A DNA stretch of 64,000 bases from Pseudobutyrivibrio sp. ACV-2 (GTDB lineage Bacteria > Bacillota > Clostridia > Lachnospirales > Lachnospiraceae): assembly GCF_900107545.1 (NCBI RefSeq), contig NZ_FNQZ01000002.1, positions 248,001 through 312,000 of the forward strand. The letters run 5' to 3'. Below the pieces are notes generated by a model. That model saw only the letters and a program-made list of their open reading frames with translations. It was not told where the DNA came from and searched no databases. The translations under genes and the position numbers were made by a program. The number at the start of each line of letters is the position of its first letter. The first letter of the stretch is position 1. This document shows positions 1 to 23,148 of this stretch, one piece after another.

Positions 1-2660
1 GCATCGGCCACACCAGGCTGCTGCAATAGCACAGTTTCGATTTCCTTAAGCTCAATTCTAAAGCCTCTGATTTTAACCTGCTGATCTGCTCTGCCTAAAT
101 ACTCTATTTCACCATTTTCAAGCCATCTGCCTAAGTCGCCTGAGCGGTAAATCCTAGTGCCTAAAAGCTTTGACTCTACAAATCTTTCAGCGGTAAGCTC
201 TGGCAGATTTACATAGCCTCTGGCAAGTCCCTCGCCTGCAACGCATATCTCGCCCACGATACCGATGCCACACAAGTTGTCACCGTTCATGATGTAGGTG
301 TCTAAGGTAGGGAGTGGTTTTCCGATGTTGCTAAGCTCACTTGCAGCATCAGCCTCCAGGATTTCCTTGTAGGTTGTATGGACAGTTGTTTCTGTAATTC
401 CATACATATTTATGATTCGTAAATACGGATTATTATTTTTGAATTCTATGGTTTTTGTAGGTTTTAAAGCCTCCCCACCTGTCACCAAATATCTAAGTGC
501 TGGAAGCGGATTTTCTACAAACTGAATCAGGTTATATAGGGATGAAGGAACCTGATTTAGCACTGTAACCTTTTCTTCTTCAAGAAGTTTTGCAAAGCTT
601 TTTGGAGCCTTTGCAACCGACTTTGGAACCAGTATCAGCTTTCCACCATAGAGCAAAGCTCCATATATTTCCCACACTGAAAAATCAAAGCAGGCTGAGT
701 GGAACATGGTCCATACATCATTTTCACTGAAATCAAACTGGAACCTATCGTTAAAGAGGAGTCTTACCACATTTCTGTGAGGTATCAAAACGCCCTTTGG
801 ATTGCCGGTTGTTCCGGATGTGAAAATGACATAGGCGGCATCTGTCGGTGCACTTTTTAAAGCCTTGATATTCTGGATTTCTGCGTCAGATGCATTTGTT
901 TCTTCACATACATTTACAGGTGTTACACCTTCTAGTTTTGTTGTATCAAACTTGTCATTTACAAGAACGAGAGTTGCCCCTGCTTTTTCAATCATGTAGT
1001 TGATTCTGTCTATTGGATAATCAGGATCCATAGGGATGTATGCTCCACCAGCCTTTAGGATGGCAAGCATTCCAACTATCAGTTCAATAGATTTTTCTAT
1101 GCAAAGTCCCACCAGACTATCTGCCTTTACACCAAGCTTTTTAAGCTTTACTGCAAGCAAATCTGATTTCGTATCAAGGTCTTTGTAGGTGATAGCTTCC
1201 TCACCGATTTGAACTGCAATTCTGTCAGGATACTCTTCTACTACTTCCCTAAAAATATCTTGGATAGCTTTATCTGTAGGGTATCCACATTCATGATTTA
1301 CAGACCACTTTAAGAGCTTTTCCTTTTCCTCTGAGAAGCAGATGTTAATATCCTTACATGAAATATCTGGATTAGCGATGACCTGCTCCATAATCAAAAG
1401 GAAACGTTCCTTGATGGCTTTCACATTTTCAGCTGTGAAAACCTGGCTGTTGTACATGAACTTAAGCTCTAATGCATCTGCTCCTGGTATAACTACCACA
1501 TTTAAGTCATAGTTTGTCTGCTCGTTTCCAGCTACTCCAAGGATTTTAAAGCCACGATTTTTCACCGCCTCTTCACTGTTGATTGACTCATCATATGGGT
1601 AGTTTTCAAACACCATGATGTGGTTTATAAGGTTGTTTTTTAGCTCGGTACCTGATTGGATTTCTACCAATGATGAATACTCATACTGCTGCAGCTTTCC
1701 ATAATTTTCCTGCATTCTGATTGCAAGAGACTTAAAGCTATCAGCCTCATTTGTATTTACCCTGATTGGGATGGTGTTTATGGTAAGTCCCACCATATTT
1801 TCAATTCCATCCACCGGCACATTTCTACCGCTTGAAACATAGCCAAAAACTACATCATCAGTGTAATTTGATTTTTGAAGCATCAATCCCCAGATGGTTT
1901 CAAACAAGAGGTTGACTGTGACTCCAAGTGTTTTGGCAAGGTTGTTAATGCCTTCGCCCAAGCTTCCATCAATAAACACGGACAGTTCGCTTGGACTATA
2001 GTTAAAGCTTCCAGTGCTTAAATCCTTTCCTTCCACAGTAAGGATATTTTTGTAATCTGCTAAATAATCCTTCCAGAACTCAATATCCTTTTTGTCCTTG
2101 CTCTTAAGCCAGTTTACATAGGTAGAAAACTCATTTCTTATATAGGTCTGCACCTTCCTACCACAGCAAATATCTGTGTAGATATTAATGAAATCCGAAA
2201 GGAGAATTCCTGTGCTCCAGCCATCCAAAATGATGTGATGCAAGGTCCAAAGAAGCTCGTATTTTCTATCGCCTGTTTTAACTACTGCAAATCTAAACAG
2301 CGGATCTCTTGCTAAATCAAATCCTTTTTTTCTTGTGCTGCTTAAGTAGTCCTCTAAGAATTGCTCCTGTTCCTCTGTAGATTTCTGAGAGATATCTATA
2401 TATTCCGGAAGAATTTTTCTATTTTTAAGTACTGCCTGTACAGGCTCCTTTACGCCTACTGTGACAAAAAATGTTCTTAGAACCTCGTAGCGGTCTACGA
2501 GATAGGCGAGTGCCTCATCTATTGCATTTTTATTTATCTCACCTTCCAATGGGATGCGCTTTTGCACTATGTACATGCTGTCCCCATATAGTTTTGTGAA
2601 TGCAAGCATTCCCCCCTGAAGGGGGGTCAGTGGATATATTTTTTCTACCTTTGCTTCCAT
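1..2660 (-). CDS. Non-ribosomal peptide synthetase, C-A-..., C-terminus cut by window edge
   Basis: This open frame has no stop in the window and runs off the left edge, so only the first ~886 residues are visible. It starts at an ATG preceded by AGGAGG, 16 bases after the stop of the upstream NRPS gene. Residues ~8-440 are a condensation domain (PLTPLQGGML; HHIILDG with His141-His142). The N-terminal motif is of the kind seen in DCL domains, which fits an upstream partner ending in an epimerase. Residues ~465 onward are an adenylation domain with FTSGTTGNPKG, NMYGITETT, YRSGDLGRW and GRADQQVKIRGFRIEL. Aligning by eye to GrsA gives the specificity residues D-F-W-N-V-G-M-V-H, a threonine code. 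The carrier domain, later modules and any thioesterase must lie to the left. Predicted job: condense Thr onto the D-Thr-ending chain. Confidence 0.93.
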   Translation of the reverse strand, partial: MEAKVEKIYPLTPLQGGMLAFTKLYGDSMYIVQKRIPLEGEINKNAIDEALAYLVDRYEVLRTFFVTVGVKEPVQAVLKNRKILPEYIDISQKSTEEQEQFLEDYLSSTRKKGFDLARDPLFRFAVVKTGDRKYELLWTLHHIILDGWSTGILLSDFINIYTDICCGRKVQTYIRNEFSTYVNWLKSKDKKDIEFWKDYLADYKNILTVEGKDLSTGSFNYSPSELSVFIDGSLGEGINNLAKTLGVTVNLLFETIWGLMLQKSNYTDDVVFGYVSSGRNVPVDGIENMVGLTINTIPIRVNTNEADSFKSLAIRMQENYGKLQQYEYSSLVEIQSGTELKNNLINHIMVFENYPYDESINSEEAVKNRGFKILGVAGNEQTNYDLNVVVIPGADALELKFMYNSQVFTAENVKAIKERFLLIMEQVIANPDISCKDINICFSEEKEKLLKWSVNHECGYPTDKAIQDIFREVVEEYPDRIAVQIGEEAITYKDLDTKSDLLAVKLKKLGVKADSLVGLCIEKSIELIVGMLAILKAGGAYIPMDPDYPIDRINYMIEKAGATLVLVNDKFDTTKLEGVTPVNVCEETNASDAEIQNIKALKSAPTDAAYVIFTSGTTGNPKGVLIPHRNVVRLLFNDRFQFDFSENDVWTMFHSACFDFSVWEIYGALLYGGKLILVPKSVAKAPKSFAKLLEEEKVTVLNQVPSSLYNLIQFVENPLPALRYLVTGGEALKPTKTIEFKNNNPYLRIINMYGITETTVHTTYKEILEADAASELSNIGKPLPTLDTYIMNGDNLCGIGIVGEICVAGEGLARGYVNLPELTAERFVESKLLGTRIYRSGDLGRWLENGEIEYLGRADQQVKIRGFRIELKEIETVLLQQPGVAD

Positions 2661-2676
2661 TGATGCCTCCTGTTTA

Positions 2677-5600
2677 CTAGCCGATAGAATCTGCTGCTTC
2701 TAGGATAAATGCAAGTTCATCCATAGATATTTCATTTGAGCCGAAATCGTCTGGTGTGTATTCAACTGATTTTTTGCCCAGACAATGTGAGCCAAGCTGA
2801 AGGAGACTATCACTTATGTGCTGCAACAGAGTCTCGATTTGCTCCTTGCTAAAATGTAGCTTGTTGTAATTGACTTCAAACACTAAACGGCCATTTTCAA
2901 TAAATGAAACAATATCTAAAATGTAAGGGCGAGTAACCTCATCCCCGATTAGATTGCCATAATGCATATCTACCATTTCAAAATCGCCACCTAATTGAGT
3001 GTTATTAATGTCTCCAAAGAAGCTAAATCCAATCTCTGTATTTACATCCAAAGTGCCCTTGTATGGGCTCTCCTTCATATAGTTTAAAATTCCGTATCCA
3101 ATTCCATGACTTGGAATTCTTCTAAGCATTTCCTTTGTGAATTTAATAAGCATTCCTTCATCTGCATAATCACTGTCTACAAGCACTGGGTAAAGTGAGG
3201 TGAACCAGCCAACAGTTCTTGTTACATCAAGATTTTTTCCTGCCTCTGCTTCTCTTCCATGACTTTCCAAATTGATGAAGTATTTGCTATCTCCACTCCA
3301 TACACTCAGCGCCCTTGCCAAGGCACTGAGTAATATATCCTGAGTCTCGGTGTTGTAGGCCACGTTGACCTCAGTTGTAATCAAGGATGTATCTGTAGGG
3401 TTGATTGTAATGGATTGTTTTTCGTTGTTTTTGTAGGTGTTATCTACATCCCTGTTTACGTTTAGTTTTGCTGATGGACTTTGTACCAAATCGCTCCAGT
3501 ATTTAATCTCATCTTCAATTCTTTCTTTATTCCAATAATCTTTTAGAGCTTCTACCCATGCTTTGACAGAATCAGTCTTAAGTGGAATGCTGTTTTCCTC
3601 ATTATCTTTGAGCTGATAATATGAATGAATCAAATCATCCAGTATTATCTGCCATGAGATACTGTCAATCACCAGATGATGTGCACAGATAAAGATGAAG
3701 CAGTCATCATCATCTCTAAACATTACCGACTTAAATAGCGGACCATTTTCTACATCAAACGTCTCTTGAAGCTGATTAGCTTTTGCAAGCATAAATGCAC
3801 TATCACAGCAACCAGCAGTTTCACACAATTCAAACTCAAATAAGGATCCTCCTATTCCATTTATTTCAGCGGTCAGCCCCTTTGGATTGAAGACTGTTCT
3901 TAAAGCGTCATGGTGTAGCACAACCTTTTGAAGCGCCCCTTCGAAATAGTCCTCATCTATGTCTGCATTTGCAGCTAAAAGCACCGCCTGATTCCAATGG
4001 TTATAATTTTCTGGATTATTATTCAAAAACCAGTTTTGGATTGGAAGAAGTGTAACCTCTCCGGTGATGATTCCCTGTTCTGCCACCTGGGTCATTTCCT
4101 CAACATAAGGCGCCAATTCTCTGATGGTCTGGTAATGGAAAATCAAATCCACCTTTGTGGTAAGGCCTGATTTTTTTAGCTCTGACACAACCTGAAGTGC
4201 CTTTATGGAATCTCCACCAAGTAAGAAGAAATTGTCAATTACACTAACTTTTTCAAGGCCAAGCACATTAATCCAAGCCTGGACAAGTGCCTCTTCCATT
4301 TCATTTTCTGGAAGTGCATTTTCAGCACCTTCATTTTCAATAGTTATATCTGGAAGAGCTCGTTTGTCTGCCTTTCCATTTGTTGTAAGCTTTATTTCAT
4401 CAACTCTCACAAAGAATTGTGGAACCATGTATTCAGGTAAGCGCTTCAGCAGATATTCTCTAAGCTTGGCATTTTCCTGCTCATCCTTTGCCACATAGTA
4501 TGCAACCAGATATTCATCTCCATTTTTTTCTCTGACTGCTGCAATAACATCAGTGATTCCTGCATACTCTCGCAATTTGCTTTCGATTTCGCCAAGCTCG
4601 ATTCTAAAGCCTCGCAGCTGCACCTGTTCGTCTATTCTTCCCAAATATTCAAGCTCACCGTTTGGCAGCCATTTAGCTAAATCTCCGGAGCGATATATTC
4701 TCTCTCCCGGATTTACAGGATTGTTTACAAATTTTTCTTCTGTAAGCTTACTGTTATTCAAATAGCCTTTTGCTAAGCCTAGGCCTGCCACGCAAAGCTC
4801 TCCAGGAATACCAATGCCACAAAGCTCATCACCGTTTAAGATATAAGTCTTTAGGGTTGGAATTGGTCTTCCGATGTTGCTCGTATCTTTTTTAAGGTCA
4901 GCTGGTTTCAGCTCCTTGTAGGTAACATGTACTGTAGTTTCTGTAATTCCGTACATGTTTATTACCCTTACGTCCTTGTGGTTTTCACACCATTTTGCGA
5001 TTTTGGTAGGCACCAGCTTTTCTCCACCAAATATCAGGTATCTAAGATTTGTCTTTTTGCCTGAGTCTACCTTGATGTAGTTGTAAAATGCTGATGGCAC
5101 CTGGTTGAACACTGTCACCTTTTCCTCGGCAATAATGTTTGAAACTGCATAAGTGTCACGAACCACATCTTTGTCTAAAAGTACCAGACGACCACCGTTT
5201 AACAGTGCTCCGTACATCTCCCATACTGAGAAGTCAAAGCAGAATTCATGGAACATCATCCACACATCGTTATGGTTAAAGTCATATAAATTCCTGTCGT
5301 TGAAAAGAAGTCTCACCAGGTTGTAGTGGGAAATCACTACTCCCTTTGGATTGCCTGTTGTACCTGATGTGAATATCACATACAGGTTGTCATTTATAGT
5401 GTTTTCTTTCTTTAAGTTTTCACCTGTTCCTACGTAATTACGTACATCTGAAAGGTCAATAATTTCAACATTTCTTAAGCTGTCATCAAGTGGTAAGGCA
5501 ATGCCTGCATCCGTTCTAACTATCACATCTGCATCAACCTGTTTTAGCATGTATCTGATACGCTCTGCAGGGTAATCAGGATTGATAGGTACATATGCTC

Positions 5601-8600
5601 CACCGGCTTTGATTATGGCAAGAATTCCGATAATCATTTCAAAGGATCTTCTAGCCACCAGCGGCACATAGGTGTCTAGCCCTACTCCGTATTCACGAAG
5701 CTGTCTAGCCAAAAGATTGGCCTTGGTGTTCAGCTCCTTGTAGGTCATATGCTTATCGCCAAAGGTCAGGGCTGTGTTAAGTGGATATTTACTAACTACC
5801 TCTTCAAACAGCTCTACTACTGTCTTTTGTGGATAGCCTATTTCAGAGATTTCCTGATTCGTAAATACGATATTCTTATCTGACTCTGACAAAAGGTTTA
5901 TGTCTTTGATGCTGCTTCCCATGTTTGTAATCTGAGTCAAAATCAACTCATAATACTTCATAAATCTTTCCATGGTTTCATGGGCAAATAGATCTGTGCA
6001 ATATTCAATCTGCATTGAAACCTTGCGGTTTCTGTTTATCACTGCAAGCTCAAAATCAAATTTTGCTGTTACGTCTTTAAGAGCATAATTTTCAAATTCT
6101 ATCCCCTCTATTTCAACGCCTGAAACATCGTAATCGTGGTAGCCAAACACTGTATCAAAAAGAGGATTTCTGCTGGTATCTCTCACCAAATCAAGCTTTT
6201 CGATTAAATCATCAAGCTGATACTCTGAGTTCTCTAAAGCATCGGTCAGATAGCTTTGCACATCCCTGATGAAAAATGCTATGTTGTTATCAGACTCCAC
6301 CTTATTTTTTAATGGCAGGGTATTTACAAACATGCCTATCATGTTTTGAAGCTCGTAGTGATTTCTTCCCTGCACCGGAGTGCCCACTACAAACTCATCC
6401 TGGCCTGTATATTTGTGAAGCAGCACCAGATAAGCGCTGTAGTAAACTGCAAACTCTGAAACATTTATGTTTCTTGCAAATTCTGAAATCTTATCCATCA
6501 CCTTGGTATCAAGAATGGCTTCAACCTTGGCGCCATTATAGGTTTTGATAAGAGGTCTTGGATAATCTGCTGGAAAATCAAGAACTGGAATTTCATCCTT
6601 AAACTGCTCTAACCAGAATTTCTCCTGCTCTCCCTGGTTTTCCTCACTTAATCTGTCGTGCTGCCATGCTGCAAAATCTCTGTACTGAAGCTTAAGTGGC
6701 TCAAGCTCCTTGCCACCGCAAATCTGCATCAGCTCTCTAACAAATATTCCAAGTGATGTACCATCTGAAATAATGTGGTGCATGTCAAACATCAGATAGA
6801 AAACATTGCTGTTTTCTTCTACTACAGCTGCTCTGATAAGTGGTCCGTTTTGCAGGTCAAATGGCTTTACAAATTCTTTTATAACTGTGTCGATGCTTCT
6901 TCCTGAAAGCTTTTCATAGGAAACAGCGACTTCCATTGTTTCATGGACTCTCTCAATAATTTCGTCATCTACTACTTCAAAGGTTGTACGCAAGCTCTCA
7001 TGGCGATTTACGATTTTTTCCATTGAAGCCTTTAACACATTGACATCAAAATTGCCTGTGATTTTCACAACATTTGGAAGATTGTAAATGGTGTTTCGCC
7101 CCATCATCTCATTTAAAAGATACATTCGCTTTTGTGCGTTGGTTACAGGATAGCTTTCTGCATCTTCAATATGGCTGATGGTGTCAGCATCATTTTCGTT
7201 TCCACTATTATCATCAATAAATGCGGCAATGCCTTTTATTGAACCATTTTCAAAAATCATTCCAAGTGGAAGCTCTACCCCAAACTGCCTTTGAACCTCA
7301 CCAATAAGAGCCATAGAGTTAAGAGAGTTTCCACCTAGCTCAAAGAAGGACTGGTTCACATCCACCTGAGTCTGATTTAACAGAGTGCAGTAGATTTCAT
7401 GAATGACTTCTTCGGTTTTAGTTTCTGGCAGTGCAACCTCTTCAGCAACTTCCACCTTGTACTGCTCAAGTACCTTATAATCAAGCTTGTTGTTTGGTGT
7501 CATTGGAAGCTTTTCAAGTGTAATGAGCTTGTTTGGAATCATGTACTCTGGAAGCTCTGCTGCAAGAGTCTCATGGATTTCCTTTTCCCAGTTATCTTCT
7601 GTTTCACTTTCTTCTGTTACGATAAATGCCTTTAATAGCTTTGCTGTATCATCGTTCTCAAATACTACTGCTGCATCCTTAATGCTTTCTATTTTTAATA
7701 ACGCATTTTCGATTGCAGTAAGCTCTACTCTAAATCCTCTGATTTTTACCTGACGATCTGCTCTGCCAACAAATTCAATATTTCCATCAGCGAGTGTTCT
7801 TCCCAAATCTCCTGTTTTATAAATCAGGTCGTCCTCGCTATTGTTGAATGGATTTACGATGAATTTTTCCTGGTTCAGCTCATCATCTCTAAAGTAGCCT
7901 AATGTACGGTAAGGAGTTCTGATATGAATCATTCCTACAGCACCAACAGGGCATGGCTTTAAATTATCATTTAAGATAATTGCCTGTGCACCAGCTATAG
8001 GCTTTCCTACTGGAATTGCATTTTTTTCTATGTCTGTAGGAGAAATTCTATAAAAAAGCTTTGCAAGAGTAGTCTCTGTAGGTCCGTAAACATTTACCAG
8101 CTGAATTCTGTCGCCAAATACTTCGTACCAATCTCTAAGGGAATTTGGAACTATTTTTTCACCGGCAAGTAACACGTTTTTGAGACTACTGAAGGAATCC
8201 TTTAGGATGTTATCTGGCTTGATGCTTGCAAACAATGATGGTGTGCAGTGCATCAGCTCAATTGCCTCATCATTTAACCAGCCTATAAAGCTTTCCCTTG
8301 AGATGATGGTTTTCTTGTCATCAGGGATGCATAAAACGCCGCCTGCAAAAAGAGGTACAAGCACATCTCTCAAATATGGATCGTGGCAAATTGGAGTAAG
8401 CTGACTCACACGAGTTTTTTCTTCAATGGCAAACTCATTTATTTCCCATTCAATAAACTGAGCCAGGCTACGGTTCATACCAAGGATTGGCTTTGGTTTG
8501 CCTGTGGTTCCTGACGTGAAGTACAGATAAGCTCCGTCAGTAGGTAAAAGTTCAGGCTCCTCATAGTCAGTTGTTGCATCGAAAAACTCCTGATAGTCGA

Positions 8601-8976: not shown

Positions 8977-8990
8977 TACTTTCCCTCTCC

Positions 8991-10850: not shown

Positions 10851-10864
10851 ATTCTGCCTCTTTC

Positions 10865-13800: not shown

Positions 13801-15409
13801 TGTCCTTTGGCTTGACGCCATTTTCTATCAGGGTGTTTGCAACTGCGTTGGCTTTGTTATCAAGCTCTATGTAGGATAGGGTTTTATCTCCCATGAAAAG
13901 TGCTGTTTTTTCAGGGTGGGCATCAACCTGATTTTCAAATAAATCTATGATTGATGACTCTCTTTCAAATTCAGTTTTTGGCGGATTGAACCTATGTATT
14001 ATCTGCTCTCTTTCCTCTGCCTGGACCAGCTCAATATCCTTTATTAATGTCTCAGGTGAGGCAGCTATGATGCCTAGTGCCACCTTAAAATGATTTACAA
14101 ACTGCTCTACAAATTCATGCTCAAACAGGTGACTGCGATAATTTATCCAGCCTCGGATTTTTCCCTTTAATCTATTTAATTCAATTTCCATCTCGCTTCG
14201 ACAGAACTTTGATGGGATTTCCTCAAAGCTCATATCAAGACTTTTTATTTCAATATGATTTTCAGGATCTTCCTCATAACTGAAAAGTATCTGATGCTCC
14301 AAGCTTTCATTTTCATAGACCATCAGCTCCTCTCTATGCTGATAATCCTTTAGGAACTGCTGGTATAAATCCTTGCAATATTCAATGGTGGAAACCTCTG
14401 GTCTTATTTCTGTTTTAATTGGAAGAGCACTGATAAAGCATCCTATAAGTCCTGCTATTTCGGCATTGTCTCTTCCCGAAGTAAGGACTCCACATACCAA
14501 ATCTTTCTGACCTGAATATTTATACAGTGTGATATAAAACGCTCCAAGCAACAGACTAAATAGAGTTATCTTTTTTTCTTTAGCAATGACCTGTAGCTGA
14601 CCTACTCTTGCTTCATCAATTTCAAAATTAATGCGACTACTTTCATGGTCAAGCTGTTTTAATCCACTGCACCTGCTGAAAAACTCAAGCTGAAAATCTG
14701 TGCCGGATAATCTGTCTTTCCAATAGTTGGCGTTTAGCTTTTCATCTCTTAAACTCTTTTGCCAGAGACTGAAATCACCGTAGGTAATTGTCTCTTTAGG
14801 ATTTTCGATGGTTTTGTTTTCAAGGCCTGCCTCGTAATACTGAATCAACTCCTTGAAAATGATGCCTGTGCTGGCACCATCTGCCAGGAGATGGTGGATG
14901 ACAAGTACTATCATCCACTCTTCATCTTCAAGTTTTATTGCATCCACTCTATAGGCTGGAGCATTCTTCAAATCAAATGGCTTGTCTCTTTCGCTTAGAA
15001 TAAAATCATTTGCTTCATCGCGGCGACCTGAATAATCCACAATACCTATGGCAAAATCTGTAGACTCTAAAGTCCTGGCAACCGACTTGCCTTCCCTTTC
15101 TTCAAAAACAGTCCTTAAGATATCATGCTTTTCTACCAGCAAATCAAAGGCTGCAGAGAAAGCTTCTAAATTTAGACTACCTTTAATTTTTGCAATACCA
15201 CCAATGTTATAGATGGTGTTGTGGTTATACAGCTTTTCGACCATCAGAATACTTTCCTGATTGTAGGAAACCTGGTACTCCTTGTTATTTGCAGGATCAT
15301 GCTTTATTAAATTGTTTTCATTCTTTGCTGCTGCAAGTTTTTTCTCTCTCAGCTTCTTCAAAAGAATGGCTTTTTGTGCTTCTGTTAAACCATTTAATCT
15401 ATCATCCAT
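10865..15409 (-). CDS. Non-ribosomal peptide synthetase, C-A-T-C (1514 aa)
   Basis: A short charged N-terminal helix (LTEAQKAILLKKLREKKL) precedes the first condensation domain at ~42-470 (HHLLADG, His172-His173). Adenylation domain ~485-985 follows (IYTSGTTGIPKG, IYGPTETT, NGKVD), then a carrier domain ~990-1055 (LGGHSI, Ser1018) and a second condensation domain ~1085-1490 (HHSIFDG, His1200-His1201). Specificity residues by eye are D-A-F-F-L-G-I-V-F, closest to bacterial Ile/Leu/Val codes. The protein ends in a C domain with no A or T after it, and the next synthetase starts with A-T, so the two must interact to form a module. It begins 6 bases after the PKS stop, and the first C domain is the natural acceptor of the PKS-bound acyl chain. 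Confidence 0.94.
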   Translation of the reverse strand: MDDRLNGLTEAQKAILLKKLREKKLAAAKNENNLIKHDPANNKEYQVSYNQESILMVEKLYNHNTIYNIGGIAKIKGSLNLEAFSAAFDLLVEKHDILRTVFEEREGKSVARTLESTDFAIGIVDYSGRRDEANDFILSERDKPFDLKNAPAYRVDAIKLEDEEWMIVLVIHHLLADGASTGIIFKELIQYYEAGLENKTIENPKETITYGDFSLWQKSLRDEKLNANYWKDRLSGTDFQLEFFSRCSGLKQLDHESSRINFEIDEARVGQLQVIAKEKKITLFSLLLGAFYITLYKYSGQKDLVCGVLTSGRDNAEIAGLIGCFISALPIKTEIRPEVSTIEYCKDLYQQFLKDYQHREELMVYENESLEHQILFSYEEDPENHIEIKSLDMSFEEIPSKFCRSEMEIELNRLKGKIRGWINYRSHLFEHEFVEQFVNHFKVALGIIAASPETLIKDIELVQAEEREQIIHRFNPPKTEFERESSIIDLFENQVDAHPEKTALFMGDKTLSYIELDNKANAVANTLIENGVKPKDKVAIICNRGFDMLAGILGILKIGCTYVPVDAEIPDSRKEFILNDSKCTAIIWDRNDYLNTDLVENLPAMLIQDCYEKDTKRPAIKVAPDTSAYIIYTSGTTGIPKGVEVSHRNVLRTMRHTNYADAKDDDRLIGLSSYAFDASIFDFFYTLLNGLGLVIVSKNLQLDIPRLIDEIESKKVTIMFVTTAFFNALIDIKPEGLKGLRRILFGGERASVMHVKKAIEVIGSGKVANIYGPTETTVFATYWDINEDLLQQEIIPIGKPLSNTTVRIVNEDGNINPVGVAGEILIGGEGVSKGYRNNPELTAQKFIVDKTGERFYRTGDLGRYMTDGKIAFCGRVDDQVKYRGFRIELGEIESAILSFDEIKQAIVVLSKDEKLGAYLCAYYVPSGQIKIEALKKSLREKLPAYMIPNYFVELQELPLNVNGKVDKKKLPKPELIINDDYVAPNGELEEALADIWEEVLGVDTVGTTDNFFELGGHSIKLAKMCALANERLDLEIPLRIAFQNPTISTLCNYLENQEQSTDTNFEYKIEKTEKSSRYEASPTQKRMVFAHMLDKSSVSYNIPFAVKLKGVDTKLLGQVFNEIIEKHEILRTRFSVSDGTVYQIVEEPFKYEIKTINTLNTITEYFNQFITSFDLNELPLFRVELVKTPDDETYLLGDFHHSIFDGVSMQVLFEDLSTIYNGEKLENPKLQYRDFAAWHNKFLSSKTIENQGQYWKKRFENFENTPELPLDFARPAHKTGKGEVIFFSIDEELTKKLRAKANNHKTTLNVVLMSMYHVLLSHYTGSDEIVTGMAVAGRRQESLQRMMGMCLNTLAIRSNPTAAKSIYDYIEEFKTDFVKDFDNQDYPFEKLVEDLGIPKQINRNPIFDTMFIMQNSVKWDFNFDGSSFSLCDLDYKTSKFDMQMEVYEESNHLKCLVAYADDLFYRSTIEGFIDAYKAILTQAVENESMLLGDISLGQTVSPDMINPFAVDLIV

Positions 15410-15415
15410 CTGCGC

Positions 15416-18400
15416 TTACCCCGCGATTTCTTCTCCTGTTTCTAACTCAGAAATAACTTCCTGTAACAGTGCTTCAAGCTCGTCATCAGATATTTCTTCT
15501 GCAAGCTCTTCCACTGTATCAAGCTCAAGTATTGACTGAACCTGAGACTGTACAAACTGTCCTAACTGAGCGATAGACTCATTGTTAAGTAAATCTACGA
15601 TAGTTATCACCGCACCTGTATTCATCTCGATTCGGTTCTTAAGCTCTGTAGACATCATTGAATCAATGCCAAGCTCGTTAAGTGAAACCTCTGACTCAAT
15701 TTTTTCAACTGGTAAATGTAATACTCGTCCAACCAACTTTTTAACTGTGGTTAAAACAAATTCCTCTCGCTCCTGGTCTTCAAGTGTCTTAAAGGTTTCG
15801 TTAAACTGAGCCAACACTTCTTCATCTGTAAGAATCAAATTATTTCCATCACTTGCACCACCTCTTAAGTGATCAAGATATGGATTTGAGTTTCTTGAAA
15901 CTGAATCAATTACCTTCTGCCAGTCAGCCTCAACCACAAGGGCATAAGGAATATTTTGCATAATTATTCGTTCCAAAGTGCATACTCCATTTATAGGTGA
16001 AATTGGAGTCATACCCTTTTTGATGTAGGTTTCCTGAAGGCCAAGCTGGCTAATCATTCCTGCATCCCATGGGCCCCAGGCAACGCTTAAAGCTGCAAGT
16101 CCCTTTTGTCTTCTGTACTCAGCAAGTCCATCTAAAAATGAATTTGCTGAAATATAGTTAATCTGTCCTGTTGCTGTAACCATGGCGGTGATAGATGAGA
16201 ACATTACAAAGAAGTCAAGTGGCTGCTTTTCAAACTGCTTGTGAAGCACCCAGTTTCCGATTGTTTTAACATCATATACCTGGTGGAATGTCTCCTTTGG
16301 CATCTCGGTCATAAGCATGTCTTTGACCATTCCAGCTGTGGAAATGATGCCTCGGATTTTTCTCTTTAGCTCAGTATTTTCCTTGAAGAAATTATTTACG
16401 CTTTCTTCATCAGCCATGTTTAGATTTACAGGTACTACCTCTACACCTTGCGTCTCTAAACCTTTTACAAATGCTATTCTTGCCTTTGTTCTTTCATCAT
16501 TTTCAGGACGTTCCCAAAGAGCTTTTGCTGGAACTGTATTTCGTCCAACAAGCACTAAACGTTTTGCACCCTTTTCAACCATCCAGTTTACAAACAACTG
16601 GCCAAGCTCTCCGAAAGCACCTGTTATCATGTAATAATCATCAGCACTAAAGCTTGTAGGGAATGGCTTTGTGAGAGTTTCGATGTTGTTGAGTCTTCCC
16701 ACATAGCGTTTGCCATCTCTGTAGGCCAGCTGGTCTTCCTCGTCACCGTATAATAAATCCTGAACCAGCTGATGTACTCCATCCTCTGAATCCGTATTTA
16801 CGATATCAGCTACACCTCCCCAGAAGGATGTGTTTTCCTGATTTCTAAGAAGTCGAGCTACGCCCCATGCTGGTCTTTGAAGGATTTGACCTTCATCTCC
16901 TGGTACAACATTTTGTGCTCCAAGTGTTACTGTAAAGATTTTGGTCTTATTTACTCCAAGTGCTTCAAGTGCCTTTACAACACTGATAAATGTGTAAACA
17001 CCTGTATCTCCTACCTCTAAAATAGTTGATTTTGAGATGTCCTCATTTCCCGCAAGATTTATATTTAAGCAGTCGATAATTCCTTCGATTTCAGAAATGC
17101 TTCTAACTGCTGCAATAGCATTTTGCATATCCTCATCGCTGTCTTTTGTTAATGTTATGCGATGATTTAAAAGCTCTTCTTTGTATTCATCCGAATACGT
17201 AAATACGTAGCAGTCCACATCTTCAGCCTTAAGTTTTTCAGCAATCATCCTACCGATGCCCTTGTCGTCCTCAAGGAGTATCCATGGGTTTGTACGCTTA
17301 CTTTTTCTTACAAGCTCCTTTTCCTTCCAGGTGAACTCATAAAGCCATTTATCAATAGTCTGTGTAGATGGCTTTTTATTACTTGCCTCAAGCACATTTA
17401 CCTTGAAGTTTTCGATTCTGGCAATGCACTTATAGTCCATGGTGTACAAAGAAATATCGCTGATTGAATAGTCATGTGTGTTTTCCTTTATTTCGCATAA
17501 AGCCCACATTTTTTCTTCAATTTTTCCATAGACACTAAAATGTCCTACTCCAACAGGAAGTCTAAGTTCACTGTTTGTATCCTCAAAGCTTGTGGTAATC
17601 ACCGTCTGGAAACAAGCATCTATCACTGCAGGGTGTATAGTGTAATCATTCTGCTCTGCAATCACTTCCTGGTTTAGCTTGAGAAGTGCAATTGCTTTGT
17701 CTTCGCAATTAACCAGCTGTTCCATATTTGCAAAATGGTTTGTGTAGAAAAAGCCCATTGCTTTGAATCTCTCGTAGATGCCTTCGTGCTGATAGCTTCT
17801 AAGCTTTTGCTTGCGTACCATGGCCTCAACTTCATCCACAGGCAGATCAAAGCCTGCTGCACACATCTGAGATTGTCTGTATTTTCCCTTTGCTACAACT
17901 TCCTTATCTGCCACATTGTAAATCGTGAAAGATGGATTAGTCTCATCCAAAACAATCTGTAATCTTGTGGCTTTATTAGGATTAATAAATGTAGCTTTAA
18001 CAAATTTGATATCCTCTAATTCATAGTAGCCTTCACCGTAAAGCTGCTTTGCAGCCTCCATAGCCATTTCCATATAGCCTGCTGCAGGGAAGACTGTGTT
18101 CCCCTGAATTTTATGGTTTGGTATAAATTTTAAAACCTGTTCATTTAGCTCAAGCTCCCAACAAGGTGTTACGCTGTGAACCTTGTGTCCCAAAATGATA
18201 TGGTCAAATATTCCAAGTCTTCTTTTTCTGGCATCCTCATTTTCGAGCCAGTATTTTTCACGCTGCCATGGATAAAATGGGAGCTTGATATAGTTTCCTT
18301 CTGTAGGATAAAAACAATCCAGGCTATTTGCCGCTCCAATAGTGAACAACGCTCCGAAGGCACCATAGAAGGTCTCTGTCTCATCCACTTTTCTTTTAAG

Positions 18401-20902
18401 AGAGGAAAATGTATTGACTTTTAGCTTTTTATCGTCTGCTAGCTGATTAATGTAGTTTGATAAAGTTGGATGAGGACCAATTTCTACAAAGGTATCAAAT
18501 CCATCGGTTAGCATATTGTTAATTGCATCAGCAAATAGCACTGTCTGTCTTACATTCTTCCACCAGTAAATATTTGAGCTCATGTCTGTAACAAGTTGAC
18601 CTGTAACAGATGAGTATAGAGTTACTGTTGGATTGTTAAGCTTTACGTCAGCCACACCCTGATTAAATTCATCTCTGATTTCTTCCATGTAGTGGCTGTG
18701 GAATGGTACATTTACACGTAAAAACTTATTAAATATTTTGTTTGCAGTAAGCTCTTCGCTTATCTCAAGCAAATCACTTTCTTCGCCTACTATAGTCAAA
18801 CCGCTGTTACTGTTAATCGCCACAATATCAACGCTGTCATAACGGTCTATATATTCCTTAACCTCTGATAATGTCAGACTCACAGCAAGCATCTTTCCTT
18901 TTCCTGTAAGTCTCTGCTGTAAACTGCTTCGGTAGAAAAGAATCTTGATAGCATCCTCAAAGTTCATCACTCCGGCACAATAAAATGCTGCTATTTCACC
19001 GGCACTGTGGCCAACTATTGCATCTGGCACTATTCCCTTTGATTCCCAAAGCTTTGTGAGAGCAACCTGAATTGCAAAGTTTGCAGGCTGAGCCACCTTG
19101 GTTTCTGCCATTTTGGAATCTTCCTCAAACTTCATCATTTCCTCGTAGAGTGACCAGCCAGAGTACTTTTTGAATTCCTCATCGCATCTTAAAATTTCGT
19201 TTTTGAATACCTCTTCTCTTGCCATCAGGTCGCGTCCCATACGCCACCACTGAGGACCCATTCCTGTGTAAACAAAGGTGATTCCATTTGTTTTTTTCTT
19301 TTTATTTTTCTGAACTAAAAGGTTTGGTTCATCCCTTAGATAGTCATCAAATTCCTTCAACAGCTGCTGTCTGTTTGCTGCCATAAACGCAAGTCTGTGA
19401 TTATGTCTATCCCTTTTATAGGACATGCTATATCCCAGGTCATACGTATTTACGTTTTCGTTTTTCTCTACAAGCTCCTTATAATTTTCAACATAATCCC
19501 TAAGTGCAGCTTCTGATCTTGCAGTGATAGGGAAGAGTCTGATTTCATCCTTATGGTCTGAGTTAATTACTTTTTTCTCTGGAGCTTCAGCCAAAACTAC
19601 ATGGCTGTTTGTTCCACCAAATCCAAATCCGTTTACACCTGCAAGCGCCACACCCTCGGTCTTAGGCCACTGCTGCAGAGTTTTTGATACGCATATATTT
19701 TTCTCTTCCAAGTTAATCTTTGGATTAAGCTTGTTTAGATTTAGATGTGGTGGAATCTCTTTTTTTGTAAGACAAAGTGAAGTCTTGATGATACTTGCAA
19801 CACCTGCTGCGCCTTCTGTATGTCCGATGTTTGTCTTCAAAGAACCAACGATACATGGCTTATTTGCATCTCTTCCTTCAGACATGATTTCAGAAATAGC
19901 TTCTGCCTCTAAAGGATCACCTACTGATGTTCCTGTTCCATGCATTTCCACATACTGGATATCCTTAGCATCTACTTTTGCACTTTTTAATGCTGCTCTG
20001 ATTACTTTTTTCTGAGCCTCTGGATTTGGCACTGTGATAGAGCTGGTGTGTCCATCCTGGTTTACAGCACTGCCTAAAATCACTGAATAAATGTTATCAT
20101 TGTCCTTTATCGCTTCAGCCAAAGGCTTTAAAACTACCACGCCAACACCTTCACCGCGAACATAGCCATTTGCCGATTCATCAAAGGTCTTGCATTTTCC
20201 ATCTACCGAAAGGAAACCGCCCTGAGATTCTGCAATTGTGTACTGAGGTGCCATGTTAAGTAATACTCCACCGGCTAAAGCCATCGAGCATTCACCATTT
20301 CTGATGCTTTGGCATGCCGTATGAATTGAAACAAGTGATGAAGAACAAGCTGTATCAATAGCCATACTTGGGCCAGTAAAATCAAAAGCGTATGATATTC
20401 TGTTTGCAACCATTGTCATCATGGCTCCAGTTGCTGTATGAACATCAATCAAATCGTAATTTTCACTTCCAAACTGAAGAATTTTGTAGTCGAGTGTGAA
20501 TGCACCCATATACACGCCCACGTCCTTGCCGGCACATTTTTCAACTACAATTCCTGCATCCTCCATAGCTTCCCAGCTGGTCTCAAGTAAGAGTCTTTGC
20601 TGTGGATCCAAAAATGGGGCTTCTCTTGGTGTGATGCCAAAAAATTCAGCGTCAAATTCGTCTATGTTATCTAAGAAACCGCCATACTGGCTTACTGTCT
20701 TGCCTTTATAATTTCTGTTTTTGTTGTAGAAGCTTTTTCTATCCCATCTGTTTTCAGGGATTTCAACTACCACGTCTTTACCATTTGCAAGAACATCCCA
20801 AAACTTTTCTACATCGTTGGAACCACCTGGGAATCTGCACCCCATTCCGATTATTGCTACAGCATCCTCATGATTCTTGTAAAAATTACTATTATCGCTC
20901 AT
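15416..20902 (-). CDS. Type I polyketide synthase module, KS-AT-DH-KR-ACP (1828 aa)
   Basis: Ketosynthase ~12-440 with DTACSSS (Cys186), HGTGTSVGDP (His321) and NIGHTEGAAG (His361), a complete condensing triad rather than a KSQ loader. Acyltransferase ~540-850 with GHSAGE (Ser633) and VPFHSH at ~732, more like malonyl than methylmalonyl selecting domains. Dehydratase ~895-1170 with NHKIQGNTVFP (His930) and HPAVIDACF (Asp1095). Ketoreductase ~1200-1660 with TGAFGELG, Ser1570, Tyr1583 and Asn1587. Acyl carrier ~1715-1790 with GIDSMM (Ser1748). There is no enoylreductase, so the two carbons added should end as an alpha,beta-enoyl group. No loading A, CoA-ligase or starter ACP is present, so the starter must come in trans. 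It is the second gene of the operon after accDA, and hands over to the C-A-T-C synthetase. Confidence 0.95.
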   Translation of the reverse strand: MSDNSNFYKNHEDAVAIIGMGCRFPGGSNDVEKFWDVLANGKDVVVEIPENRWDRKSFYNKNRNYKGKTVSQYGGFLDNIDEFDAEFFGITPREAPFLDPQQRLLLETSWEAMEDAGIVVEKCAGKDVGVYMGAFTLDYKILQFGSENYDLIDVHTATGAMMTMVANRISYAFDFTGPSMAIDTACSSSLVSIHTACQSIRNGECSMALAGGVLLNMAPQYTIAESQGGFLSVDGKCKTFDESANGYVRGEGVGVVVLKPLAEAIKDNDNIYSVILGSAVNQDGHTSSITVPNPEAQKKVIRAALKSAKVDAKDIQYVEMHGTGTSVGDPLEAEAISEIMSEGRDANKPCIVGSLKTNIGHTEGAAGVASIIKTSLCLTKKEIPPHLNLNKLNPKINLEEKNICVSKTLQQWPKTEGVALAGVNGFGFGGTNSHVVLAEAPEKKVINSDHKDEIRLFPITARSEAALRDYVENYKELVEKNENVNTYDLGYSMSYKRDRHNHRLAFMAANRQQLLKEFDDYLRDEPNLLVQKNKKKKTNGITFVYTGMGPQWWRMGRDLMAREEVFKNEILRCDEEFKKYSGWSLYEEMMKFEEDSKMAETKVAQPANFAIQVALTKLWESKGIVPDAIVGHSAGEIAAFYCAGVMNFEDAIKILFYRSSLQQRLTGKGKMLAVSLTLSEVKEYIDRYDSVDIVAINSNSGLTIVGEESDLLEISEELTANKIFNKFLRVNVPFHSHYMEEIRDEFNQGVADVKLNNPTVTLYSSVTGQLVTDMSSNIYWWKNVRQTVLFADAINNMLTDGFDTFVEIGPHPTLSNYINQLADDKKLKVNTFSSLKRKVDETETFYGAFGALFTIGAANSLDCFYPTEGNYIKLPFYPWQREKYWLENEDARKRRLGIFDHIILGHKVHSVTPCWELELNEQVLKFIPNHKIQGNTVFPAAGYMEMAMEAAKQLYGEGYYELEDIKFVKATFINPNKATRLQIVLDETNPSFTIYNVADKEVVAKGKYRQSQMCAAGFDLPVDEVEAMVRKQKLRSYQHEGIYERFKAMGFFYTNHFANMEQLVNCEDKAIALLKLNQEVIAEQNDYTIHPAVIDACFQTVITTSFEDTNSELRLPVGVGHFSVYGKIEEKMWALCEIKENTHDYSISDISLYTMDYKCIARIENFKVNVLEASNKKPSTQTIDKWLYEFTWKEKELVRKSKRTNPWILLEDDKGIGRMIAEKLKAEDVDCYVFTYSDEYKEELLNHRITLTKDSDEDMQNAIAAVRSISEIEGIIDCLNINLAGNEDISKSTILEVGDTGVYTFISVVKALEALGVNKTKIFTVTLGAQNVVPGDEGQILQRPAWGVARLLRNQENTSFWGGVADIVNTDSEDGVHQLVQDLLYGDEEDQLAYRDGKRYVGRLNNIETLTKPFPTSFSADDYYMITGAFGELGQLFVNWMVEKGAKRLVLVGRNTVPAKALWERPENDERTKARIAFVKGLETQGVEVVPVNLNMADEESVNNFFKENTELKRKIRGIISTAGMVKDMLMTEMPKETFHQVYDVKTIGNWVLHKQFEKQPLDFFVMFSSITAMVTATGQINYISANSFLDGLAEYRRQKGLAALSVAWGPWDAGMISQLGLQETYIKKGMTPISPINGVCTLERIIMQNIPYALVVEADWQKVIDSVSRNSNPYLDHLRGGASDGNNLILTDEEVLAQFNETFKTLEDQEREEFVLTTVKKLVGRVLHLPVEKIESEVSLNELGIDSMMSTELKNRIEMNTGAVITIVDLLNNESIAQLGQFVQSQVQSILELDTVEELAEEISDDELEALLQEVISELETGEEIAG

Positions 20903-20953
20903 TTCTTATTCTCCCAATATCTTTAAAGCCAAATTTAATTTCCTCGTTATGTC

Positions 20954-22603
20954 TTAGAAATTTCTAAAACGTATATATCTCTCTTTTGCGATTTGATCTG
21001 GATTTATACCCTCATATTTCATCAAAAATGAATTAATATTCATGTCTAATTCCTTACAAATACCAGCCATATTTTCCACTGTAACAGGAGTTTCCTCGTC
21101 GATGATTCTGTCGATAATGCCAAGCTCCAATAAATCTCTTGCACACATTTTCATCCTGTTTGCTGCCTCAGGTGCTCTGGAATTGTCCTTCCAGATAATA
21201 CTTGAATAGCTCTCTGGAGTAAGTACAGAATACACTGCGTTTTCAAGCATCCACACCTCGTTACCAATTCCAAGAGCAAGGGCGCCTCCACTTCCGCCTT
21301 CGCCGATAATGATTGATAGTGTTGGTGTTTTAAGTGTGCCGATTTTATTTAGCACATTTGCAATGGCAACACCCTGTCCGTTTATTTCAGACTGTTTTCT
21401 GCAATCAGCACCGATGGTGTCGATGAAAAAGACAATTGGTCTGCCAAATTTTTCTGCCTGTTCAGCCAAACGCATTACTTTTCTGTAACCCGATGGAGAT
21501 GCCATTCCAAAATTTCTGTAGAGGGCATCCTGTATGTTTTCCTTGCCCTTTTGATTTCCGATAACCGTAACAGGTCTGCCGTGGAAGGAAGCTATGCCGC
21601 CGATGATGGCATGGTCCTCTCCACCAATTCTGTCCCCGTACAACTCGTAGAAATTATCAAACAGCTTGTCGATATAATTTCTACAGGTTGGACGCTTCTG
21701 ACTTCTGGCAATTTCCACCGTTTCCCAAGCGGTTCTTCTGTTTGTTAAATCAAGACTTCTTTTTTGCGATTGTCTCTTTCTAAAGGGGATTTTTCGCTTC
21801 ATGCCAAACAGCTTTGGAAGGTTAATTTTTCGCTTATGCATATCCAGTAAAAATATGAGCTTGTCTCTAAGCTCCTGCCTGGTCACTACATCGTCCACAT
21901 ATCCATGGGACTTTTGGAACTCAGCTGTCTGAAAATCATCTGGGAGCTTTTCACCTGTATTTTGTTCAACAACTCTTGCACCAGCAAATCCAATCATGGC
22001 ACCTTTTTCTGCTAAAATCACATCACCAAGCATTGCGAAACTTGCCGTAACTCCGCCCATTGTAGGATTTGTTAAAACAGAAATATAAAAACCGCCTGCG
22101 TCGTTAAATACCTTTACAGCATTTGCAGTTTTCTCCATCTGCATCAGAGAAATCATCCCTTCCTGCATTCTGGCTCCACCGGAACAACAAAACAGAATGA
22201 CTGGAAGCTTTTTTCTTGTTGCAATCTCGAATAGTCTGGTTACTCGTTCACCAACTATATATCCCATGCTACCCATCAAAAATCTTCCGTCCATGACACC
22301 GATTGCCACATCATGTCCACCAATTTTCATTTCACCGATTGCTATCGCTTCGTCCAAATTGTATTTAGCAGACATCTCGTTAATTTTTTCTTTGTAGGCC
22401 GGATCCTTTACCTGAGTTGGATAATCAATCTCATGCTTGAATTCCCTAAAGGTGCCTTTATCCTCCAGGCTCTCTATACGGCGATAAGCATGAACTCTTA
22501 AGTAAGCACCGCAGTTAGGACAAATTGAATAATTGTTTTGAACCACGATTTTTTCAAATGTGGTTTTGCATTTTTTACAGGTTCTGTACTCTTGGCCCTC
22601 CAT
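20954..22603 (-). CDS. accDA: Acetyl-CoA carboxylase carboxyltransferase, fused beta-alpha subunits
   Basis: 549 residues. The N-terminal half is AccD-like with a four-Cys zinc ribbon (CKKC near residue 9, CPNC near residue 29) and the crotonase-type carboxyltransferase core (GGARMQEG; MGGVTASFA). The second half from ~290 is AccA-like (GEGGSGGALALG; ENAVYSVLTPESYSSI). The two subunits are separate genes in many bacteria and are joined here. It transfers carboxyl from biotin to acetyl-CoA, making malonyl-CoA. Biotin carboxylase and BCCP genes are absent from the window. As the first gene of the PKS-NRPS operon, 51 bases ahead of the synthase, it most likely feeds malonyl-CoA to the AT domain, though it could also be the cell's only carboxyltransferase. 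The ATG follows AAGGAGG. Confidence 0.92.
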   Translation of the reverse strand: MEGQEYRTCKKCKTTFEKIVVQNNYSICPNCGAYLRVHAYRRIESLEDKGTFREFKHEIDYPTQVKDPAYKEKINEMSAKYNLDEAIAIGEMKIGGHDVAIGVMDGRFLMGSMGYIVGERVTRLFEIATRKKLPVILFCCSGGARMQEGMISLMQMEKTANAVKVFNDAGGFYISVLTNPTMGGVTASFAMLGDVILAEKGAMIGFAGARVVEQNTGEKLPDDFQTAEFQKSHGYVDDVVTRQELRDKLIFLLDMHKRKINLPKLFGMKRKIPFRKRQSQKRSLDLTNRRTAWETVEIARSQKRPTCRNYIDKLFDNFYELYGDRIGGEDHAIIGGIASFHGRPVTVIGNQKGKENIQDALYRNFGMASPSGYRKVMRLAEQAEKFGRPIVFFIDTIGADCRKQSEINGQGVAIANVLNKIGTLKTPTLSIIIGEGGSGGALALGIGNEVWMLENAVYSVLTPESYSSIIWKDNSRAPEAANRMKMCARDLLELGIIDRIIDEETPVTVENMAGICKELDMNINSFLMKYEGINPDQIAKERYIRFRNF

Positions 22604-23148
22604 TTTATTCCTCCTTAAAAACCTTAGGCTTCAGCCTTTTCCCAAAGTTTTTCGAACCGGTCCGTGATTTATTAGCAATCCGTTCACAGTTTGTTCACAA
22701 ATCGCTTAACGTTGTTAACACATTAAGTGAAAGAGTGTTATTTGGTCAACACAATTTTGAGTATTATTTGATTTTTGTACATCATGGTGGAAAAATCTTG
22801 ATTATTTTTCGTAAAACATCTACAAAAGGGTCTATTATCTGCTTATTCTTTGATTATTTTCCTCTGAACTCAATCAAACTTTTACACTTTAACCGAATAA
22901 AGGATGATTTGATGTGATTGTTTTACTGCATCTCAATCATCAACTCAATCAAAAATGGGCATTTTTTATTCCAAATTGCGCGCAATCCATCCCTTGACAT
23001 TTTCGGAAATTTTTCGTAATGCGAAAAAACAATTGCGTGTGATTGTTTTTATTGCCTAGTTTTTTTGTGTCCAAATTGTGAAAAAAGTACAAAAAAAGAC
23101 CCTTTATTGGGTCAAAACGTCAAAAAAGATAAAATTCGATCATAAGTA
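22604..23148. other. Long divergent intergenic region with repeated motifs
   Basis: No believable gene lies here; the plus-strand open frame across the first part is a shadow of accDA. The DNA is A+T rich and carries short repeats: CTCAATCAAA near 22871 and 22945, TGTGATTGTTTT near 22914 and 23039, and the TGTGAAC pair near 22690. A minus-strand hairpin GACCC-AATAAA-GGGTC followed by seven T (23091-23113) could act as a weak intrinsic terminator against transcription entering from the right. The region is long enough to hold binding sites for a pathway regulator of the biosynthetic operon. Confidence 0.5.
22720..22749 (-). promoter_or_regulatory. Candidate promoter of the PKS-NRPS operon
   Basis: On the minus strand a TTGACC -35 (22744-22749) and a TAATGT -10 (22720-22725) are 18 bases apart, ~115 bases upstream of accDA. 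Downstream of it, in the leader, lie an inverted repeat TTAAC-GTT-GTTAA (22706-22718) and a tandem TGTGAAC pair (22682-22699), possible regulator sites. This is a pattern match only. Confidence 0.4.

What the first reader, a model, noticed from the sequence alone, without database searches (positions are those of the whole stretch)
1..22750. Hybrid PKS-NRPS operon with its own malonyl-CoA-forming enzyme
At least six genes in >20 kb on one strand, with gaps of 5-51 bases, run accDA, KS-AT-DH-KR-ACP, C-A-T-C, asnB, A-T-C-A-T-E, C-A-…. All readable catalytic motifs are intact, so the line should be active. Placing a fused carboxyltransferase at the head ties malonyl-CoA supply to the synthase. 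A predicted product core is enoyl-acyl, Ile/Leu/Val-type residue, unknown residue, D-Thr, Thr. Such systems are uncommon in rumen-type Lachnospiraceae, and I recognise no characterised cluster.
Basis: partly seen in the sequence, partly recalled or inferred. Interest (0 to 1): 0.78.

Follow-up and report, generated by a model that had tools for sequence, protein, structure and literature searches.

The report
Gut-bacterium lipopeptide cluster with own carboxyltransferase
A gut-type Lachnospiraceae bacterium carries a complete 36-kb gene set for an unknown fatty-tailed peptide that probably ends in a reactive aldehyde, headed by a spare and altered copy of the enzyme that makes its building block, which may feed the pathway or protect the cell from its own product.

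Summary
In the parent contig it runs 14 genes, 36.6 kb: accDA, PKS (KS-AT-DH-KR-ACP), C-A-T-C, asnB, A-T-C-A-T-E, C-A-T-C, C-A-T-thioester reductase, MFS, membrane protein, flavin reductase, type II thioesterase, ABC permease, ABC ATPase, PPTase. Predicted product: polyenoyl-(Ile/Val)-X-(D-Thr)-Thr-Thr released as an aldehyde. The PKS lies in a gut clade sister to the iterative PKSs of tetramate macrolactams.

AccDA is a second copy; the cluster has no accB or accC. Fusion of AccD to AccA is ordinary in this family. Unusual: this copy forms a 100/100 clade with AccDAs heading two other, unlike megasynthase operons. All three share 11 substitutions at columns near-invariant in 44 compared enzymes, including Ile at the position where Pro to Gln is reported to give thailandamide resistance in Salmonella.

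Dedicated malonyl-CoA supply (0.45) and self-protection of the carboxyltransferase target (0.38) cannot be separated by sequence. In two termite-gut relatives the only carboxyltransferase genes found in the assembly directly precede the homologous PKS, as part of a full ACC set, which favours supply. New variant of a known kind.

The parts
20954..22603 (-). accDA: fused acetyl-CoA carboxyltransferase beta+alpha, second copy in the genome, first gene of the operon
   Evidence: clade with two other megasynthase-associated AccDAs
21413..21415 (-). codon 397 (Ile): position of AccA Pro164 of Salmonella/E. coli, where Pro to Gln is reported to give thailandamide resistance
22058..22060 (-). codon 182 (Met): position of E. 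coli AccD Met203; Thr in 43 of 44 distinct non-cluster rows compared
15416..20902 (-). type I PKS, KS-AT-DH-KR-ACP, possibly iterative (polyene-forming)
   Evidence: tree
10865..15409 (-). NRPS C-A-T-C; A domain Ile/Val-like (DAFFLGIVFK)
   Evidence: code read by eye, code table recalled
8991..10850 (-). glutamine-hydrolysing asparagine-synthase-type amidotransferase (AsnB-like)
   Evidence: TIGR01536 over cut-off
2677..8976 (-). NRPS A-T-C-A-T-E; A1 of Lys2-like type (DPRHLAVLAK), A2 Thr (DFWNIGMVHK)
   Evidence: codes read by eye, table recalled
1..2660 (-). NRPS C-A-T-C, C-terminal part outside the window (whole gene G000:C37:246182-250660); A Thr-like (DFWNVGMVHK). The operon continues leftwards to G000:C37:234025: C-A-T-reductase, MFS, membrane protein, FMN reductase, type II TE, FtsX permease, ABC ATPase, PPTase

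Best explanation
This is a complete hybrid PKS-NRPS operon for an N-acylated pentapeptide released reductively as an aldehyde. A PKS, probably acting iteratively, builds a polyenoyl chain, which the first C domain joins to an Ile/Val-type residue; then come an unassigned residue, D-Thr, Thr and Thr, and the terminal thioester reductase frees the C-terminal aldehyde. AccDA is a carboxyltransferase paralogue that belongs to such clusters. It most likely pairs with the housekeeping AccB-AccC and raises malonyl-CoA supply when the cluster is expressed, because an iterative PKS uses several malonyl units per product. Shown: gene content, domain order, second-copy status, and the shared clade and substitutions. 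Inferred: iteration, residue identities, aldehyde release and the role of AccDA. The confidence given is for the supply role; for 'complete acyl-pentapeptide cluster with reductive release' alone it is about 0.85.
For: Order and domains; terminal reductase over the TIGR01746 cut-off (285 against 213 bits). The PKS clade (window plus five termite-gut MAGs) is sister to long PKS-NRPS proteins of the tetramate macrolactam kind, whose single PKS module is used iteratively (PMC8399814, passages); L100 has two FAD oxidoreductase genes after such a gene and L085 an alcohol dehydrogenase, as in that cluster type. ACC genes stand before this PKS type in other forms too: accB-accC-accD-accA in L062 (the same genome as G084) and accB-accC-accDA in L063, the only carboxyltransferase genes found in those assemblies, and not of the window's AccDA clade. 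The same AccDA type heads unlike megasynthases in G632 and G251: AccDA is 57% identical to the window's, synthase parts 27-39%. That fits a need common to all (malonyl-CoA) better than one tied to a single product. CT glycine motifs SGGAR, MGGV and GEGGSGGA are kept in the window copy (by eye).
Against: The cluster carries only the carboxyltransferase half. The precedents that I know for an extra CT gene alone in a cluster are self-resistance: AdmT (PMC13151354 passages) and the thailandamide cluster (resistant target gene: title of a cited paper; that it is an accA copy is recalled). The Ile at the P164 position is not explained by supply. Three of the six PKS-clade members have no ACC in the 10 kb upstream. 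The PKS clade is sister to, not inside, the iterative clade, under a midpoint root. Catalytic enzymes are often better conserved than megasynthases, so the 57% against 27-39% contrast is weak. No expression or chemical data.
Confidence: 0.45

Rival explanations
1. AccDA is an insensitive copy of the product's own target: the lipopeptide inhibits acetyl-CoA carboxyltransferase, and the cluster brings an altered CT that keeps fatty acid synthesis going, as AdmT does for andrimid.
For: CT only, without accB/accC, as a second copy: housekeeping operon on C34 in this genome, separate accD and accA in G632, pieces of another ACC at contig ends in G251. Ile in 3 of 3 cluster copies where 43 of 44 distinct other rows have Pro and one has Ser. 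P164Q there gives thailandamide resistance in S. enterica as reported by PMC10197871 (passages), and P160Q arose in F. johnsoniae grown with B. thailandensis. Andrimid, moiramide B and thailandamide act on AccA/AccD, and a duplicated accD (admT) gives self-resistance (PMC13151354 passages).
Against: Housekeeping enzymes can carry other residues there: Lys in S. aureus AccA and in two class-level genomes (L196, L198). In PMC10197871 the F. johnsoniae change was not itself tested for susceptibility, and its abstract gives another change (G83R) for AccA than its results (P160Q). The AccD Met shared by the three is the wild-type E. coli state. The three megasynthases differ, so unlike products would all have to hit one target. 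In L062/L063 the CT beside the PKS is the only one found. The butuanimide producer, which makes a CT inhibitor, has no duplicated ACC gene.
Confidence: 0.38
2. AccDA has shifted substrate and makes an unusual carboxylated acyl-CoA extender, as single CT subunits beside PKSs do in mycobacteria (recalled: AccD4 with Pks13).
For: 11 shared substitutions at near-invariant columns; in the window copy the AccA loop 397-408 is strongly changed.
Against: The PKS AT has a malonyl-type GHSAGE...VPFHSH pattern (read by eye; rule recalled). The AccAD fold is normally acetyl-CoA specific (recalled).
Confidence: 0.1
3. AccDA is a stray housekeeping duplicate with no tie to the pathway.
For: Fused AccDA is common in the family.
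Against: It stands before a megasynthase operon in three genera, forms one 100/100 clade apart from the accC-linked copies, and has a 51-base gap to the PKS here.
Confidence: 0.07

Closest known systems
Polycyclic tetramate macrolactam PKS-NRPS (HSAF/SGR814 type)
   Same: KS-AT-DH-KR-ACP feeding a C domain; PKS sister clade, 36-42% identity to the long proteins there
   Different: There PKS and NRPS are one protein ending in TE, with one A domain and FAD oxidoreductases (PMC8399814 passages); here separate proteins, five A domains, reductase release, no such oxidoreductases
Dipeptide-aldehyde NRPSs of human gut Lachnospiraceae (Guo et al. 2017, as cited in PMC10794557, passage)
   Same: Lachnospiraceae NRPS products ending in an aldehyde; here the aldehyde is predicted from a terminal thioester reductase
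   Different: Those are dipeptides; this is a PKS-capped pentapeptide line with export genes and AccDA
Andrimid adm cluster with AdmT
   Same: Hybrid PK-NRP cluster holding an extra ACC carboxyltransferase gene (PMC13151354 passages)
   Different: AdmT is an AccD homologue reported to confer self-resistance; here AccD and AccA are fused and function is untested; synthases were not compared by sequence
Persiamycin perHIJ
   Same: ACC genes inside a polyketide cluster, read by its authors as malonyl-CoA formation (PMC7296137 passages)
   Different: There CT, BC and BCCP and an aromatic PKS; here CT only and type I PKS-NRPS

Membership tests
Hybrid type I PKS-NRPS lipopeptide cluster | PKS module followed by NRPS modules, with PPTase and export genes | tested here: met
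Hybrid type I PKS-NRPS lipopeptide cluster | Acyl-peptide product made | not testable with these tools
   no chemistry
Reductively released peptide aldehydes | Terminal thioester reductase over curated cut-off, GxTGFLG and YxxxK present | tested here: met
   (TIGR01746 285 bits, cut-off 213); motifs by eye
Polycyclic tetramate macrolactams | Fused PKS-C-A-T-TE with FAD oxidoreductase genes | tested here: not met
   separate proteins, no TE domain on the NRPS, no FAD oxidoreductase genes in the operon
Iterative PKS | Groups with iterative PKSs | tested here: inconclusive
   sister to that clade (SH-aLRT 99-100, midpoint root), not inside it; iteration itself not testable
Self-resistance carboxyltransferase (AdmT-like) | Second CT copy inside the cluster beside a housekeeping one | tested here: met
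Self-resistance carboxyltransferase (AdmT-like) | Changed residue at a known resistance position | tested here: inconclusive
   Ile at P164 in 3 of 3, but Lys occurs in ordinary enzymes
Self-resistance carboxyltransferase (AdmT-like) | Confers resistance to the product | not testable with these tools
   product unknown
ACC supply genes in a polyketide cluster (perHIJ-like) | Complete ACC (CT, BC, BCCP) in the cluster | tested here: not met
   CT only in the window cluster; a full set precedes the PKS in relatives L062 and L063

The most novel reading that the evidence does not exclude
The three AccDA-headed Lachnospiraceae clusters make a class of polyene-peptide inhibitors of acetyl-CoA carboxyltransferase, and their AccDA is a dedicated insensitive target copy. 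To my knowledge they would be the first such antibiotics from strict gut anaerobes, and the P-to-I AccDA would be a marker for finding more.
Probability: 0.35. Interest if true: 0.78.

Novelty: new variant of a known kind. Interest (0 to 1): 0.58.

Why it matters
Gut Lachnospiraceae are known for small NRPS products such as dipeptide aldehydes; a long PKS-NRPS line of this kind was found in few of the family genomes sampled. A carboxyltransferase lineage that stays with unlike megasynthases across three genera points to a shared need, malonyl-CoA or target protection, that one enzyme assay can decide. If it is target protection, the sequence names the product's target before the product is known.

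Tried and rejected
Rejected: 'fusion of AccD and AccA shows coupling'. Of 46 fetched AccDA loci (L039-L057, L156-L182; some are the same place twice), 44 hold accC, and the two without are the G632 and G251 cluster copies. Rejected: G202 (L157) as a further cluster copy; it lies in a fatty-acid operon. Rejected as support for resistance: the shared AccD Met, because E. coli wild type has it.

Limits of the counts. The 44 comparison rows are the best-scoring loci (20 and 30 loci of 305 and 204 matching genomes) plus the own housekeeping enzyme, L062 and L063; they are not a random sample, and lower-ranked AccDAs were not read for the motif. Class-level search (41 of 391 genomes matched): the 8 out-of-family loci that I read (L190, L191, L194-L199) have Pro in 6 and Lys in 2; the rest were not read. 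In one search the search for ACC near the PKS covers what was held; 12 of the 80 loci have less than 10 kb upstream. 'Only CT' in L062/L063 means in assembled MAGs, the latter 1.4 Mb, and searched for AccDA only. The AccDA tree warns of long branches (own housekeeping, L062, L063, window); the three-copy clade had 100/100 support. The PKS tree left out L097 and L110 (fragmentary frames); several rows differ in composition. That the sister clade holds C-A-T after the PKS rests on protein length, an HHxxxD motif in most and an A-domain hit in most of these loci, not on Pfam. G251 AccDA lacks the N-terminal zinc-finger part and lies on a 16-kb contig, so its neighbourhood is incomplete. A-domain codes were read by eye; the code table is recalled.

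Unexplained or untested: tandem C domains (end of gene 6, start of gene 7; 7 C-family domains for 5 A domains); the AsnB role; whether A. baylyi AccA G154, a butuanimide-resistance position, falls on a changed residue (not mapped). No genus name was reached: the one genome-contig scan may leave out the window's own genome; family rests on G084, told to be of the same family, which matches WRBB01000016.1 (titled Lachnospiraceae; L062) in contig length and ACC coordinates. No structure was predicted. Loci fetched but not examined: L010-L017 beyond the table, L036, L037, L060, and most of L141-L155. Paper searches (open-licence papers only): no listed title described an AccDA-headed cluster in Lachnospiraceae; of these papers I read passages of six and only listings of the others, so absence from print is not shown.

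Full report
What is there. The window is G000:C37:248001-312000 of a 3.66-Mb genome. Reading on to the left in the same contig gives the whole operon, all on the minus strand, C37:234025-270603, 14 genes: accDA; PKS KS-AT-DH-KR-ACP; NRPS C-A-T-C; AsnB; NRPS A-T-C-A-T-E; NRPS C-A-T-C; NRPS C-A-T-thioester reductase; MFS; a protein without a family, hydrophobic by eye; FMN reductase with SCP2 tail; type II thioesterase; FtsX-type permease; ABC ATPase; PPTase (Pfam; NCBIfam). A UvrD-type helicase gene follows on the same strand, and a PRD antiterminator gene and a PTS gene lie divergently on the right. Scans of the head region gave 5 promoter-like sites (shuffles 6.6) and 3 terminator-like sites (2.1), so nothing beyond chance.

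Predicted chemistry. A-domain codes, read by eye from the alignment and judged with a recalled table, are DAFFLGIVFK (Ile/Val-like), DPRHLAVLAK (like the aminoadipate type of Lys2, unassigned), DFWNIGMVHK, DFWNVGMVHK and DFWNIGMIHK (three Thr-type). The E domain would make the first Thr D. The terminal reductase scores 285 bits against a cut-off of 213 and keeps GxTGFLG and YxxxK (by eye), so release as an aldehyde is the plain prediction; gut Lachnospiraceae NRPSs are reported to make dipeptide aldehydes that inhibit cathepsins (PMC10794557, passage). There are seven C-family domains for five A domains; the C domains at the end of gene 6 and the start of gene 7 stand side by side, unexplained.

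The PKS. Among 299 sampled family genomes 7, own included, reach E<=1e-100; the best other match is G084, full length, 50% identity; G278 matches over most of the length at 30%. In the genus, 2 of 29 reach 1e-150, own included. In named genomes (best 80 loci kept of a capped list) five loci at 50-51% identity come from MAGs named Emb289 or Lab288, which I take to be termite-gut samples (recalled): L061, L062 (the same genome as G084), L063, L064, L117. A tree of 79 rows puts the window with these five (SH-aLRT 100), sister to a clade of 43 rows, 41 of them proteins of 3.1-3.6 thousand residues and two cut by contig ends, mostly Actinomycetota. L100 has two FAD oxidoreductase genes after such a gene and L085 an alcohol dehydrogenase, as in tetramate macrolactam clusters; in those the single PKS module is used iteratively (PMC8399814, passages). 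So the acyl part is more likely a polyene than a single enoyl unit, but the sister position does not prove iteration.

AccDA. The genome has a separate operon on C34: accB, accC, accD, accA, fabH (Pfam) and further fatty-acid genes (by eye). The cluster copy is therefore a second carboxyltransferase without its own biotin carboxylase and carrier. Fused AccDA is common in this family, and 44 of 46 fetched AccDA loci hold accC; the two without are G632 and G251. G632 is the nearest relative (58%) and heads another megasynthase operon; G251 is the best relative after the window and is followed by a C-A-T and KS-AT megasynthase, though on a 16-kb contig. With the window they form one clade in a 47-row tree, 100/100. 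They share the same non-consensus residue at 11 of 205 columns that are at least 95% uniform in 44 distinct other rows, among them Ile in 3 of 3 where 43 rows have Pro and one (L063) Ser. That position is AccA Pro164 of Salmonella; P164Q is reported to give thailandamide resistance, and P160Q arose in Flavobacterium grown with the producer, where it was not tested on its own and where the abstract names another change (PMC10197871, passages). The position is not invariant everywhere: S. aureus and two class-level genomes have Lys. The AccD Met shared by the three is the E. coli wild-type residue 203 and is not evidence of resistance.

Comparison with G632. Its operon runs accDA, type II TE, C-A-T, KS-AT-ACP, a protein with two C, two A and two T domains, an AT-less KS-ACP, C-A-MT-T-reductase, MFS, FabG, FabF, a shorter KS-like protein, FabZ, a protein without a family, ABC ATPase, permease, PPTase. 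The helper set and its ends (accDA first, PPTase last) match the window, but synthase parts are 27-39% identical while AccDA is 57%. A common accessory plan with differing products speaks for a general role of AccDA, though a metabolic enzyme is expected to be better conserved anyway.

Relatives of the PKS and ACC. Of the five close PKS loci, two have ACC genes directly before the PKS: L062 accB-accC-accD-accA, the accA stop overlapping the PKS start by four bases, and L063 accB-accC-accDA; in both assemblies these are the only matches to AccDA. The other three have CT genes elsewhere and none in the 10 kb upstream. In the remaining 75 loci no CT match was found in the DNA held; 12 of the 80 hold less than 10 kb upstream, and one (L112) has part of an accC-like frame at its edge. 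The L062/L063 enzymes are not of the window's AccDA clade, so ACC genes probably came to this PKS type more than once.

Weighing. For supply: a PKS sister to iterative ones, ACC-PKS joining in different forms, conservation of AccDA across unlike synthases, and a published cluster in which ACC genes are read as malonyl-CoA formation (persiamycin perHIJ, CT plus BC plus BCCP, PMC7296137, passages). For self-protection: carboxyltransferase only, an extra copy in all three genomes as far as assembled, changed at a reported resistance position, and AdmT of andrimid as a precedent; against it, the butuanimide producer makes a CT inhibitor without a duplicated ACC gene (PMC13151354, passages). I hold 0.45 for supply, 0.38 for self-protection, 0.1 for another extender and 0.07 for no link. 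The cluster as such, a complete acyl-pentapeptide line with reductive release, I hold at about 0.85. Nothing here shows expression or a product.

Noticed in passing
L035:9480-15413 (G000:C24:109480-115413): A second NRPS in the same genome, two A, one C, two T domains and a terminal reductase (1977 aa), which fits a dipeptide-aldehyde kind; followed by a 576-aa frame that looks like a membrane protein.
   Followed up: partly
L005:11737-12477 (minus) and L059:7196-7846 (minus): Proteins without a Pfam family, hydrophobic by eye, in both the window and the G632 operon; blastp found no match between them at E 1e-3. G251 has a DUF6790 protein after accDA.
   Followed up: partly
L062:9039-9986 and 9983-15517: In the Lab288 Lachnospiraceae MAG the accA stop overlaps the PKS start by four bases, which suggests translational coupling of ACC and PKS.
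   Followed up: no
L183:12714-14174: The G251 cluster AccDA starts after the zinc-finger region (486 aa); truncation, misassembly or another start is possible.
   Followed up: no
G000:C27:52705-54069: A further condensation-domain match in a 500-aa open frame of the same genome.
   Followed up: no
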